From Micrococcus endophyticus (GTDB lineage Bacteria; Actinomycetota; Actinomycetes; Actinomycetales; Micrococcaceae): DNA of 64,000 nt. The notes below the pieces were generated by a model. It saw nothing but the letters and a program-made list of their open reading frames with translations. It had not been told where the DNA came from and searched no databases. Location of the stretch: positions 992,001-1,056,000 of the forward strand of contig NZ_JACHMW010000001.1 of NCBI RefSeq assembly GCF_014205115.1, in the 5' to 3' direction. The position numbers and the translations under genes were made by a program. Shown here piece by piece: positions 827 to 53,302 of this stretch. Within the stretch, counting starts at the first letter, position 1, and the number at the start of each line of letters is the position of its first letter.

Positions 827-900
827 GCCCCAGTAGCTCAGCTGGACAGAGCAGCGGCCTTCTAATCCGCCGGTCGGGGGTTCGAATCCCTCCTGGGGCA
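827..900 (+). tRNA. tRNA-Arg (anticodon TCT)
   Basis: Cloverleaf with acceptor arms GCCCCAG/CTGGGGC, D-stem GCTC/GAGC, anticodon loop CTTCTAA and T-loop TTCGAAT; discriminator A. CCA is not encoded (CCG follows). The base pair closing the anticodon loop is a C-T mismatch (GCGGC/TCCGC), which is unusual for this tRNA. Reads AGA, a rare codon in such GC-rich DNA. Confidence 0.95.
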
Positions 901-961
901 CCGAGAAGGGGCGGAGCCCTCCGAGCACGCCCGACGTCCGCCGCGCCCGAAGGAGACCGCT

Positions 962-32658: not shown

Positions 32659-32805
32659 CACGGGTTCGAGGAGGGGGATCCGGCCGGGGTGGGGCCGGGG
32701 ACGGACCGGCGGCAGGAATGACAGCGGCGGGGGCGGAACGAGCCCACAGGAAGGCCGTGAGCCGGACCGCCGCTTTCTCAGCGACGGCCCGGCTCAGGGC
32801 GGGGG

Positions 32806-32879
32806 TGGACCCAGACGGACTCGAACCGCCGACACCCGCGGTGTAAACGCGGTGCTCTGACCAACTGAGCTATGGGTCC
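32806..32879 (-). tRNA. tRNA-Val (anticodon TAC)
   Basis: Read on the minus strand: acceptor arms GGACCCA/TGGGTCC, D-stem AGCTC, anticodon arm CCGCG-TTTACAC-CGCGG, T-loop TTCGAGT, discriminator A. CCA is not encoded (CCC follows). Confidence 0.95.
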
Positions 32880-32894: not shown

Positions 32895-33380
32895 CTACCG
32901 GTCGCCGAGCAGGGCGCGCGTCGCCGCCTCGTGCTCCGTCCGCGAGCGCGGCCAGCCCGGGGCGGCCGTCACCCGAGCGGCCTCGACGCCGTCCGCGTCC
33001 AGCAGCACGGACACGCGGCGGGCGCGGCCGGACGCCGCGTCGAACGCGTCCAGCGCCGCGCAGGCCGCGCCGTGCGGCCAGAAGTCGGAGAGCAGGACCA
33101 GATCCTCGGGCAGTCCCAGCTCCTCGCGGACCCGACGCAGCACGGGGCCCGCGTCGCAGGCGAGGACCCGCACCGCCACGCCGTCGGCGGCGAGGTCCGT
33201 GGCCAGCTCCCCCAGCCAGCCCAGCTCGCCGGTGCACACCGGGGTGAACGCGCCGGGCAGGAGGACGAGCCACGTGGCCCACGGCGCGGCCGCGTCCTCG
33301 GGCCCGCGGGTCGGCGGCCAGGGCCAGTCCTGGCCACGGTCGTCCCGCAGGGCGGGGACGGCACCGGGCTCCTCGGCCAC
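32895..33380 (-). CDS. AhpE-like peroxiredoxin
   Basis: A ~161-aa thioredoxin-fold peroxidase. The peroxidatic Cys is in LPGAFTPVCTGEL (PxxxTxxC) and the conserved Arg is probably in the C-terminal GWPRSRTEHE. No second (resolving) Cys is placed as in 2-Cys types; the AC at CDAGP and AACAAL may serve. The frame stays open upstream through a 27-bp tandem array encoding RRSAVADDP repeats, so the true start is uncertain. The GTG at 33378-33380 begins a normal-length protein and lies at the edge of the array. It is coupled to the DUF3052 gene. Confidence 0.82.
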   Translation of the reverse strand: MAEEPGAVPALRDDRGQDWPWPPTRGPEDAAAPWATWLVLLPGAFTPVCTGELGWLGELATDLAADGVAVRVLACDAGPVLRRVREELGLPEDLVLLSDFWPHGAACAALDAFDAASGRARRVSVLLDADGVEAARVTAAPGWPRSRTEHEAATRALLGDR

Positions 33381-33529
33381 CGCGCTTCTGCGCGGGTCCT
33401 CAGCCACCGCGCTTCTGCGCGGGTCGTCAGCCACCGCGCTTCTGCGCGGGTCGTCAGCCACCGCGCTTCTGCGCGGGTCGTCAGCCACCGCGCTTCTGCA
33501 CGGGTCGTCAGCCACCGCGCTTCTGCACG
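33377..33529. repeat. Six-copy 27-bp tandem array at the DUF3052/peroxiredoxin junction
   Basis: CCACCGCGCTTCTGC recurs at 33377, 33404, 33431, 33458, 33485 and 33512, exactly 27 bases apart and nearly identical. On the coding (minus) strand each unit contains the DUF3052 ending QKRGG-stop and, in the peroxiredoxin frame, an AGAAG-GTG start-like signal and nine codons RRSAVADDP. It arose by duplication of the DUF3052 3' end. 27 is a multiple of three, so copy changes keep the peroxiredoxin frame. Confidence 0.92.
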
Positions 33530-33939
33530 AGCCGCTGGGCCGCCCAGTCCTCGGAGACGCCCGCGCCGGTCGTGGCATGCAGGCCCGCGGTGCCGGCGGC
33601 CTCCTGCACGTCCGCCGGGTTCACGTGCCCGGCCCGGCCCTTGCGCGGGGTCATCAACCACACGGGGCCGGAGTCCAGGGAGCGCTGGGCGTCCACGAGC
33701 GCGTCCGCGAGGTCCGTGACGTCGCCGTCCTCGGCGCGCCACCAGTACAGGACGGCGTCCGCCGGCTCCTGGTCCTCCTCGGTCAGCAGCTCCTCGCCGA
33801 GGGCGTCCTCCAGGCCGTCGCGGAAGCTGAAGTCGACGTCGTCGTCGTACCCCCACTCCTGCACGAGGTCGCCCTGCGCGAGGGCGAGCTCCGCCAGGAG
33901 CGCGCTGTCCGTCGAGGTCGGCGTCGACCCTGCCTCCAT
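33508..33939 (-). CDS. DUF3052 protein
   Basis: A 143-aa actinobacterial DUF3052 protein. The N-terminal half is acidic (QEWGYDDDVDFSFRDGLEDALGEELL), followed by DAVLYWWRAEDGDVTDLADALVDAQ, SGPVWLMTPRKGRAGHVNPADVQEAA, and a basic end LVQKRGG. Members are often next to aceE, as here (divergent), but the function is unknown. AAGGAGG lies 11 bases before the ATG. Its stop codon is the outermost unit of the 27-bp array. Confidence 0.9.
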   Translation of the reverse strand: MEAGSTPTSTDSALLAELALAQGDLVQEWGYDDDVDFSFRDGLEDALGEELLTEEDQEPADAVLYWWRAEDGDVTDLADALVDAQRSLDSGPVWLMTPRKGRAGHVNPADVQEAAGTAGLHATTGAGVSEDWAAQRLVQKRGG

Positions 33940-34193: not shown

Positions 34194-36944
34194 GTGAGCG
34201 CAGCCGAAGAGAGTTCCCAGATCCTCAGCGGCCTGACCCATCAGTTCCCGGACAAGGATCCGCAGGAGACCGCCGAGTGGATCGAGTCGCTCGACGGGCT
34301 CATCGAAGAGCGGGGCACCGAGCGCGCGCAGTTCATCATGCGCTCGCTGCTCCAGCGCGCGGGGGCGAAGTCCGTGGGCGTGCCGATGGTCACCACCACG
34401 GACTACGTCAACACGATCCCCGCCGACCAGGAGCCCGAGTACCCCGGCGACGAGGAGCTCGAGCGCCGCTACCGCAACTACCTGCGCTGGAACGCCGCGG
34501 CCATCGTGCAGCGCGCCCAGAAGGAGGGCATCGGCGTCGGCGGCCACATCTCCTCGTACGCCGGCCAGGCGACCCTCTACGAGGTGGGCCTGAACCACTT
34601 CTTCCGCGGCCAGGACCACCCCGGCGGCGGCGACCACATCTTCTTCCAGGGCCACTCCTCCCCGGGCAACTACGCCCGCGCGTTCCTCGAGGGCCGCCTC
34701 ACCGAGGAGGACCTGGACGGCTTCCGCCAGGAGAAGTCCCGCCAGGGCCACGCCCTGTCCTCCTACCCGCACCCGCGGATGATGCCGGACTTCTGGCAGT
34801 TCCCCACCGTGTCCATGGGCCTGGGCCCGATGAACGCGATCTTCCAGGCGCAGACCAACCGGTACCTGCACAACCACGGGATCAAGGACACCTCCGACCA
34901 GCACGTCTGGGCGTTCCTCGGCGACGGCGAGATGGACGAGCCCGAGTCGCGCGGCCAGCTGCACGTGGCGGCCAACGACAAGCTCGACAACCTGACCTTC
35001 GTCATCAACTGCAACCTGCAGCGCCTCGACGGCCCGGTGCGTGGCAACGGCAAGATCGTCCAGGAGCTGGAGTCCTACTTCCGCGGCGCCGGCTGGAACG
35101 TCATCAAGGTCCTGTGGGGCCGCGAGTGGGATCCGCTGCTCGAGGCCGACGACGAGGGCGAGCTCGTGCGCATCATGAACGAGACGCTCGACGGCGACTA
35201 CCAGACCTACAAGGCCGAGTCCGGCGGCTTCGTCCGCGACCACTTCTTCGGCCGCTCCTCCGCCACCAAGGAGATGGTGGCGGACATGAGCGACGACGAG
35301 ATCTGGGGCCTGAAGCGCGGCGGCCACGACTACCGCAAGGTCTACGCCGCCTACAAGTCCGCCATGGAGCACAAGGGCCAGCCCACCGTGATCCTCGCGC
35401 ACACCATCAAGGGCTACGGCCTGGGCAAGTCCTTCGAGGGCCGCAACGCGACCCACCAGATGAAGAAGATGACGGTCGAGGACATCAAGGTGTTCCGCGA
35501 CCGCCACCGCATCCCCGTCACGGACGAGCAGATCGAGCGCGACCCCTACGACATCCCGTACTACCACCCGGGCCAGGACGCCCCGGAGATCAAGTACCTG
35601 ATGGAGCGGCGCAAGGAGCTCGGCGGCTTCGTCCCCGAGCGTCGGGCGAAGCACCACAGCATCCCGGTACCCCCGGAGGCCGCCTACAAGCAGGCGCGCA
35701 AGGGCTCGGGCAAGCAGCAGGCGGCCACCACCATGGCGTTCGTCCGGCTGCTCAAGGACCTGATGCGGGACAAGAACATGGGCTCGCGCATCGTGCCGAT
35801 CATCCCGGACGAGGCCCGCACCTTCGGCATGGACTCGTTCTTCCCGACGGCGAAGATCTACAACCCCAAGGGCCAGAACTACCTGTCCGTGGACCGCGAC
35901 CTCTTCCTGTCCTACAAGGAGTCGCCGCAGGGGAAGATCTACCACGTCGGCATCAACGAGGACGGCGCCACCGCCGCCTTCAACGCGGTGGGCACGGCGT
36001 ACTCCACCCACGGCGAGCCGATGATCCCCGTCTACATCTTCTACTCGATGTTCGGGTTCCAGCGGACGGCCGACAACGTCTGGGCCGCCGGCGACCAGCT
36101 CGCGCGCGGCTTCATGATCGGCGCGACGGCGGGCCGCACCACGCTCGCGGGCGAGGGCACCCAGCACATGGACGGCCACTCCCCCGTGATCGCGGGCACC
36201 AACCCGGCCGTGAAGCACTACGACCCGGCGTACTCCTACGAGATCGCGCACATCGTGCGTCAGGGCTTCGAGGACATGTACGGCGAGCACGACCGCGGCG
36301 AGGACGTCCGCAACGTCATCTACTACCTCACGGTCTACAACGAGCCGATCCACCACATCGACGAGCCCGAGGACCTGGACGTGGAGGGCCTGCTCAAGGG
36401 CATCTACCGCCTCTCCGAGGGGCAGGGCGACGGCCCGAAGGTCCAGCTGATGGGCTCCGGCGTCTCGCTGCCGTGGGCCGTGGAGGCGCAGGGCATCCTC
36501 GCCGAGGAGTGGGGCGTGAACGCGTCCGTGTGGTCGGTGACCTCGTACAACGAGCTGTACCGCGACGCCGTCGCGGCGGAGAAGGACGCCCTCAAGGACC
36601 CGTCGGCCGCCCCGCGCGTGCCGTACGTGACCCAGAAGCTCGAGGGCGCCGAGGGCCCCGTGGTGGCCACCTCGGACTTCGCCACCTCGTGGACGAACCA
36701 GATCCGCCCGTTCATCCCGAACCGGTTCGCGGCCCTGGGCGCCGACGAGTTCGGCTTCGCCGACACCCGTTCGGCGGCGCGCCGGTACTTCCTCATCGAC
36801 TCCCACTCGATGGTGGTCCGCGCCCTGCAGCTCCTCGAGGAGGAGGGCTCCGTGGAGAAGGGCACCGCCGCGAAGGCCCACGAGAAGTACCGCCTGGACG
36901 ACGTGAACGCCGGCACCACCGGCAACGCGGGCGGCGACGCCTGA
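34194..36944 (+). CDS. aceE: Pyruvate dehydrogenase E1, homodimeric type
   Basis: A 916-aa thiamine-diphosphate enzyme that decarboxylates pyruvate and loads the acetyl group on E2 lipoyl domains, feeding acetyl-CoA production. [22 protein letters not shown], the TPP motif [15 protein letters not shown]...[12 protein letters not shown], and [19 protein letters not shown] are as in E. coli AceE. Full length. GGAGG is seven bases before the GTG start. It stands alone: no E2 or E3 gene follows. It lies immediately upstream of the fatty-acid regulator and fab operon, a natural user of its product. Confidence 0.97.
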
Positions 36945-47566: not shown

Positions 47567-47688
47567 CTCGACCACCTCCTGGGCTCCAGGGTGGCCGGAG
47601 GGCTCCCGGCGGCGGGGCGGACGGGCCCGGATGTGAGGAGGCGGGCGCCTGTGCAGGAGTCGTCGTCGCACGGGCGGCGGCCCCCGCT

Positions 47689-47735
47689 TCAGGCGCCCGC
47701 ATCAGGCCCCCGCCTCAGGCCCCCGCCTCAGGCGG
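47689..47735. repeat. 13-bp tandem repeats before the DUF2469 3' end
   Basis: TCAGGC(C/G)CCCGC(C/A) recurs at 47689, 47702, 47715 and (partly) 47728. Non-coding, between yraN and DUF2469. Confidence 0.75.
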
Positions 47736-52859: not shown

Positions 52860-53302
52860 TCGGACTTCTCGGCGGCCTCGGCCGGGGCCTCGGCGGCCTC
52901 CTCGGCCGGGGTCTCGGCCTCGGCGGACTCCTCAGCCTTGGGCTCCTCGGCCTTGGGCTCCTCCGGCAGGATGACCGAGCCCTTGTCGGGGGCCACGAAG
53001 GCCTCCTTCTCGGACTTGGACTTCAGGGTGCCCTCGGCGCCGGACTCGCCCTTGAACTTCTGCCAGTCGCCGGTGATCTTCAGCAGCGCGGCGACCTGCT
53101 CGGTGGGCTGGGCGCCCACGGAGAGCCAGTACTGCGCGCGCTCGGAGTCGACCTCGATGTACGAGGGCTCCTCGGTCGGGTGGTACTTGCCGATCTCCTC
53201 GATCGCACGGCCGTCACGGCGGGTGCGGGAGTCGGCGACGACGATGCGGTAGTACGGGGCGCGGATCTTGCCGAACCGCTTCAGGCGAATCTTGACAGCC
53301 AC
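52856..53302 (-). CDS. rpsP: 30S ribosomal protein S16 with long acidic tail
   Basis: A 148-aa S16: [41 protein letters not shown] is canonical and the S16 core ends near residue 85. The rest is an extension ending in repeats [33 protein letters not shown]. The GTG at VAVK gives the normal N-terminus and is 11 bases after GAGGAG; a GTG four codons earlier overlaps that site. Confidence 0.96.

What the first reader, a model, noticed from the sequence alone, without database searches (positions are those of the whole stretch)
33377..33529. A 27-bp six-copy array joins the DUF3052 and peroxiredoxin genes and carries a stop/start signal in every unit
The array is a multiplication of the 3' end of the DUF3052 gene. 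Each unit holds the DUF3052 stop (GGC TGA) and, in the overlapping peroxiredoxin frame, AGAAG followed by GTG, so each unit could restart translation. Because 27 is divisible by three, copy-number change alters only the peroxiredoxin N-terminus (RRSAVADDP units) or the distance between genes. This could tune peroxide defence by slippage.
Basis: partly seen in the sequence, partly recalled or inferred. Interest (0 to 1): 0.65.

Follow-up and report, generated by a model that had tools for sequence, protein, structure and literature searches.

The report
Duplicated stop/start junction before peroxiredoxin gene
In a Micrococcus genome the spot where one gene ends and the next (a peroxide-destroying enzyme) begins has been copied six times in a row, most likely giving the enzyme a floppy, length-variable front tail; whether the cell uses this to tune the enzyme is unknown.

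Summary
The array is real: on the minus strand, six copies of a 27-bp unit (5.6 by TRF, 98% match), with no other copy of its 17-base core at 0-1 mismatches in the 2.71-Mb genome. It multiplies the DUF3052/peroxiredoxin junction GTGGCTGA, a "-8 nt" start/stop overlap. Five of six units carry the TGA. The peroxiredoxin is AhpE-like.

An array of a different, 24-bp unit sits at the same junction in two other Micrococcus genomes, with 3 and 2 copies. Over 3.4 kb those two loci differ by 24 substitutions and exactly one unit, so copy number does change. In the 3-copy genome the last unit's GTG is GGG, so peroxiredoxin probably starts further upstream there.

All six starts have weak Shine-Dalgarno pairing and are predicted to be base-paired. 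Best reading: ribosomes ending DUF3052 restart at the first unit's GTG, and the array becomes a disordered N-terminal tail, 9 residues per unit. Each unit also adds one AGA codon, the rarest arginine codon in the sampled frames (0.54 per thousand). Tuning of peroxide defence is untested; neutral slippage is the simpler view.

The parts
33376..33528 (-). 27-bp tandem array, six copies of the core CAGAAGCGCGGTGGC (5.6 units by TRF)
33508..33939 (-). DUF3052 gene (143 aa); its stop TGA is in the first array unit
   Evidence: (PF11253, E 8.5e-45)
32895..33515 (-). AhpE-like peroxiredoxin read from the first-unit GTG (206 aa; about residues 1-50 array-encoded)
   Evidence: the start is inferred
33508..33515 (-). 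GTGGCTGA, -8 nt start/stop overlap of unit 1, the ancestral coupling site
   Evidence: present as GTGNNTGA in 9 of 11 Micrococcus genomes
33378..33380 (-). last in-frame GTG (unit 6), the rival start; the other in-frame GTGs begin at 33488, 33461, 33434 and 33407
33495..33497 (-). AGA codon in the peroxiredoxin frame; further ones begin at 33470, 33443, 33416 and 33389
32804..32879 (-). tRNA-Val just downstream of peroxiredoxin
34194..36944 (+). pyruvate dehydrogenase E1 (aceE-type), divergent from DUF3052
827..902 (+). tRNA-Arg anticodon UCU, expected to read AGA

Best explanation
The array arose by tandem duplication (slippage) of the DUF3052/peroxiredoxin coupling junction. Ribosomes that finish DUF3052 at the unit-1 TGA restart at the overlapping unit-1 GTG, as expected in single-copy relatives. 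They then read all further units in the peroxiredoxin frame, so the AhpE-like peroxiredoxin carries a disordered N-terminal tail of five 9-residue repeats. Copy-number change lengthens or shortens that tail in 9-residue steps and adds or removes one AGA codon each time. Shown: the array, its sister array, the copy-number change in the sister array, unit lengths divisible by three, weak and structured starts (by prediction), and the AGA content. Inferred: use of the unit-1 start, disorder in the cell, and that the net effect on enzyme amount is small or mildly negative rather than adaptive.
For: GTGNNTGA is at the orthologous junction in 9 of 11 Micrococcus genomes, single-copy in six, so the unit-1 site is ancestral. 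In G007 the last unit's GTG is GGG, and the next GTG in frame (codon 42) would cut off the conserved PALRD segment, so an upstream unit probably supplies the start. The losses of a stop or start signal seen (TGA to CGA in G000, TGA to TGC in G008, GTG to GGG in G007) are all in the last unit and leave the peroxiredoxin frame open. Both unit lengths, 27 and 24, are multiples of three. All six GTGs have an anti-Shine-Dalgarno pairing of only -1.9 kcal/mol, and the start codon plus one base has under 1% chance of being unpaired, which favours restart by a ribosome already there. G007 and G008 differ over 3.4 kb by 24 substitutions and one 24-bp unit. The model gives block means of pLDDT 45-56 and no secondary structure for residues 1-50, against 74-96 for the blocks after residue 50.
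Against: No protein or RNA data. The lost last start rests on one draft genome, and a CTG start there is not excluded. Multiples of three are common among repeats of this genome (28 of 36 TRF rows of score 80 or more), so two such lengths are weak evidence. The open frame through the array follows from the first unit; the third frame is open too. The unit-1 start is predicted to be the second least accessible of the six over 16 bases. The review reports that more negative spacing lowers coupling more than added distance does (PMC12548453, passages), so -8 is not the best arrangement. Five AGA codons behind the start would be an odd price if the tail were selected. Folding of the whole junction is not stronger than shuffles (z -0.53).
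Confidence: 0.58

Rival explanations
1. Peroxiredoxin starts at the last GTG (unit 6); the other units are untranslated spacer that moves the restart site about 130 nt away from the DUF3052 stop and so lowers coupling with each added copy.
For: A start at 33380 gives MAEEPGAVPALRD, nearest the short N-terminus of single-copy relatives, and avoids all five AGA codons.
Against: That GTG has the same weak Shine-Dalgarno pairing and is predicted to be the least accessible of the six. In G007 the matching GTG is lost. Unit lengths need not be multiples of three under this reading.
Confidence: 0.2
2. Mixed starts: several units initiate, giving a ladder of peroxiredoxin isoforms whose sum depends on copy number.
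For: Six in-frame GTGs with near-identical local context. Coupling is reported to persist at 3- to 10-fold reduced efficiency at spacings up to about +40 nt (PMC12548453, passages).
Against: Weak Shine-Dalgarno pairing and hairpins at every unit. Ribosomes that restarted at unit 1 reach units 2-6 already in the peroxiredoxin frame.
Confidence: 0.18
3. A mobile interspersed repeat of the MIRU kind that inserted at the start codon.
For: MIRUs also sit at coupled start sites and some vary in copy number (PMC12548453 and PMC2734929, passages).
Against: The unit is at one locus only at 0-1 mismatches and is made of the gene's own 3' end; the sister array has another unit made from the same local sequence.
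Confidence: 0.02

Closest known systems
Translational coupling with -8 nt (NTGNNTGA) start/stop overlap (review PMC12548453, passages read)
   Same: GTGGCTGA between DUF3052 and peroxiredoxin has this form.
   Different: Here the whole junction is tandemly repeated, with one stop in use and up to six in-frame starts.
Mycobacterial interspersed repetitive units (MIRU)
   Same: Short repeats at coupled gene junctions in a high-GC actinobacterium; tandem copies vary.
   Different: Single locus, 27- or 24-bp units derived from the local gene, -8 rather than -4 spacing, no sign of mobility.
In-frame coding tandem repeats, some making disordered protein segments (tolA of E. coli, PMC3477136, start of abstract in a search listing; Borg elements, PMC9879509, passages)
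   Same: Unit length a multiple of three, copy-number change, predicted disordered repeat peptide.
   Different: The repeat spans a gene boundary and carries the stop of one gene and the start of the next.
Mycobacterium tuberculosis AhpE (Rv2238c), 1-Cys peroxiredoxin
   Same: Best sequence and fold match of the peroxiredoxin domain.
   Different: About 30% identity. The solved chains are 153-164 residues long, against 206 with the tail here. The DUF3052 and aceE neighbourhood in M. tuberculosis is recalled, not checked.

Membership tests
AhpE-type peroxiredoxin | Nearest solved structures are AhpE | tested here: met
   The 7 matches are Rv2238c/MT2298 chains or 4xih, which names AhpE R116A; the top 12 Foldseek matches are AhpE.
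AhpE-type peroxiredoxin | Peroxidatic motif PxxxTxxC (motif recalled) | tested here: met
   PGAFTPVC in the window protein and in L020-L022, by eye.
AhpE-type peroxiredoxin | One-cysteine peroxidase activity | not testable with these tools
   Needs biochemistry.
Translationally coupled gene pair | Overlapping stop and start, same strand | tested here: met
   GTGGCTGA at 33515-33508; GTGNNTGA in 9 of 11 Micrococcus genomes.
Translationally coupled gene pair | Downstream translation depends on upstream translation | not testable with these tools
   Only indirect: weak Shine-Dalgarno pairing and hairpin by prediction.
MIRU | Dispersed copies at many loci | tested here: not met
   Six hits with 0-1 mismatch, all in the array; three scattered hits at 2 mismatches.
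MIRU | 40-100 bp unit coupled with -4 nt spacing | tested here: not met
   27-bp unit, -8 spacing.
Variable-number in-frame tandem repeat | Copy number differs between close relatives | tested here: inconclusive
   Met for the 24-bp sister array: 3 versus 2 copies in G007 and G008. For the 27-bp array of the window only one genome was available.
Variable-number in-frame tandem repeat | Unit length a multiple of three, frame kept open | tested here: met
   27 and 24 bp.
Contingency locus (adaptive switch) | Copy number changes expression with a fitness effect | not testable with these tools
   No expression data.

The most novel reading that the evidence does not exclude
The array is a heritable translational rheostat: each duplicated junction puts one more AGA codon, a codon once reported as unassigned or nonsense in M. 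luteus, between the coupled start and the AhpE domain. Slippage would then set peroxiredoxin output step by step and create cell-to-cell differences in peroxide tolerance.
Probability: 0.12. Interest if true: 0.75.

Novelty: new variant of a known kind. Interest (0 to 1): 0.42.

Why it matters
Tandem repeats in genes and between genes are well known. A tandem repeat of the stop/start coupling signal itself, seen with two different unit lengths at the same junction in one genus, gives a natural copy-number series (1, 2, 3 and 6 units) for asking where a terminating ribosome restarts when several identical starts are on offer. It also gives a natural ladder of 0, 1, 2 and 5 AGA codons for testing how Micrococcus decodes a codon once called unassigned.

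Tried and rejected
MIRU-like mobile repeat: rejected, since the unit is at one locus at 0-1 mismatches.

A special RNA fold of the whole junction: no, z -0.53 with 58 of 200 shuffles at least as stable. Single units (five strings tested) do form hairpins of -10.0 to -15.1 kcal/mol.

Arrays at this junction elsewhere in the family: none seen, but the test is coarse. TRF rows of score 80 or more among the 75 loci L009-L083 were at L009, L011 and L020 only, and L011 and L020 are the same genome. The two-copy array of G008 falls below that threshold and was seen by eye, so other two-copy arrays could be missed by TRF. One search found DUF3052 in 377 of 395 family genomes; I looked at the junction in 70 of them (11 Micrococcus, 59 others) and in two loci of other families.

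More strains from viral contigs: one pattern search found nothing. No strain-level collection of this genus was on hand.

Papers: the searches showed none on this locus in their listings. DUF3052 is named in three held papers (listing only).

One search was run in a wrong frame and is void; one search replaces it. In one search the L022 row began one codon before its GTG.

Full report
Observation. On the minus strand between DUF3052 and a peroxiredoxin gene the window holds a tandem array of a 27-bp unit: TRF 33376-33526, 5.6 copies, 98% matches, score 288; the second best of 28 rows in the window scores 93. The core CAGAAGCGCGGTGGC is present six times at exact 27-base spacing. In the genome (2,710,986 bases, one contig) the 17-base core has six matches at 0-1 mismatches, all in the array, and three elsewhere at 2 mismatches. 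In 464 kb of this genome, the window plus 20 sampled stretches, the array ranks second of 189 TRF rows. Five units carry TGA; the unit nearest peroxiredoxin reads CGA.

Genes. The upstream gene is DUF3052 (PF11253, E 8.5e-45), the downstream one is AhpC-TSA (PF00578, E 1.3e-7), and a divergent pyruvate dehydrogenase E1 gene lies beyond DUF3052. The peroxiredoxin is AhpE-like: the seven PDB sequence matches are M. tuberculosis AhpE chains (best E 3.2e-10), and the top 12 Foldseek matches are AhpE. NCBIfam gave no match for either protein. tRNA-Val follows.

Ancestral state. DUF3052 was found in 11 of 11 genomes of the genus. In 9 of 11 the peroxiredoxin GTG overlaps the DUF3052 stop as GTGNNTGA, in the +1 frame: six single-copy and three with arrays. 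G001 and G010 have an ATG after or across the stop. This has the form of the enriched -8 nt spacing named in a review (PMC12548453, passages). By my reading, 12 of 19 loci from other genera of the family have -4 (five) or -1 (seven) overlaps, and the nearer ones share a PALRD or PRLRD segment close to the start. So the coupled junction is old and the array is new.

A second array. Over about 3.4 kb these loci differ by 24 substitutions and by a net length change of 24 bases inside the array, which the aligner splits into 2 and 22. This is direct evidence of copy-number change. The tree from DUF3052 and peroxiredoxin (13 rows) joins G000 with G004 (82/85) and these with G007 and G008 (90/94), neither at the tool's 95/80 mark. 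G004 has no array, so two births of arrays, or one birth with loss and change of unit, are both possible. In 40 further junctions fetched from other genera (three without a peroxiredoxin match) and 19 earlier ones (one without) no array was seen; TRF rows of score 80 or more in L009-L083 are limited to L009, L011 and L020, a threshold that a two-copy array can miss.

Which start? In G007 the last unit's GTG is GGG; the only GTGs before the conserved PALRD segment are in units 1 and 2. I saw no ATG or TTG there, but CTG codons exist and are not excluded. The losses of TGA (G000 unit 6, G008 unit 2) and of GTG (G007 unit 3) are all in the last unit and leave the peroxiredoxin frame open. The accessibility values do not single out unit 1: over 16 bases it is the second least accessible, after unit 6. 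A weak, structured start depends on a ribosome that is already there, and only unit 1 is crossed by DUF3052 ribosomes. Hence the unit-1 start is the best reading; it is inferred, not shown. Against it, the review says that more overlap lowers coupling more than added distance does, and that coupling persists at reduced efficiency to about +40 nt, so unit 2 may contribute.

Product. From unit 1 the protein has 206 residues. AlphaFold2 with a five-row alignment gives block means of pLDDT 45-56 and no secondary structure for residues 1-50, and 74-96 for later blocks. The shallow alignment limits what low confidence means.

AGA. The DUF3052 ending QKR (CAG AAG CGC) read one base on gives AGA. Duplicated junctions therefore carry AGA into the peroxiredoxin frame: 0, 1, 2 and 5 codons in G004, G008, G007 and G000. 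In 227 gene-like open frames of the sampled 464 kb (chosen by my own length and third-position GC filter), AGA is the rarest arginine codon (50 of 91,827 codons, 0.54 per thousand, the array's six included). The peroxiredoxin frame has six when counted from the upstream ATG; the next highest gene has three. A review says that AGA and AUA disappeared in M. luteus (PMC4695839, passage), and a reference list names Kano et al. [quoted passage not shown] the paper itself was not read). A tRNA-Arg with anticodon UCU lies at 827-902 of the window and has a 97-100% match in all 11 genomes (anticodons were not re-read in the others), so AGA should be readable, perhaps slowly.

Function. Nothing here shows an effect on peroxide defence. 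Slippage at a GC-rich, hairpin-forming junction, tolerated because it stays in frame and adds only a tail, accounts for what was seen. The bolder reading, a copy-number rheostat through AGA codons, is not excluded. It is weakened by the lack of any conserved copy number and by the rarity of arrays in the genus (3 of 11 genomes).

Novelty. Coupled junctions, in-frame tandem repeats and MIRUs at coupled junctions are known. A tandem repeat made of the coupling junction itself did not show in the listings of the eight paper searches named under Tried and rejected, which cover open-licence papers only.

Noticed in passing
L093:6999-7174 (G000:C1:1386999-1387174): A 45-bp array of 3.9 copies, the top TRF score in the sample; its units hold a perfect palindrome CCCGACA-GAT/GGT-TGTCGGG, which looks like an operator or iteron.
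   Followed up: partly
window 827-902: tRNA-Arg(UCU), with 97-100% matches across all 11 Micrococcus genomes, although AGA has been reported as unassigned in M. luteus; this bears on that old claim.
   Followed up: partly
G007 and G008 (L011, L012): Two genomes held as different species are about 99.3% identical over 3.4 kb at this locus.
   Followed up: no
window 33481-33501: Unit 2 keeps CCC GTG CAG in the DUF3052 frame, a possible 6-codon mini-ORF (VQKRGG) after the stop; units 3-6 have GCG instead of GTG.
   Followed up: no
window 47679-47733 and 52868-52963: Other smaller tandem arrays (13 bp x 4.2; overlapping rows with periods of 12 to 30 bp).
   Followed up: no
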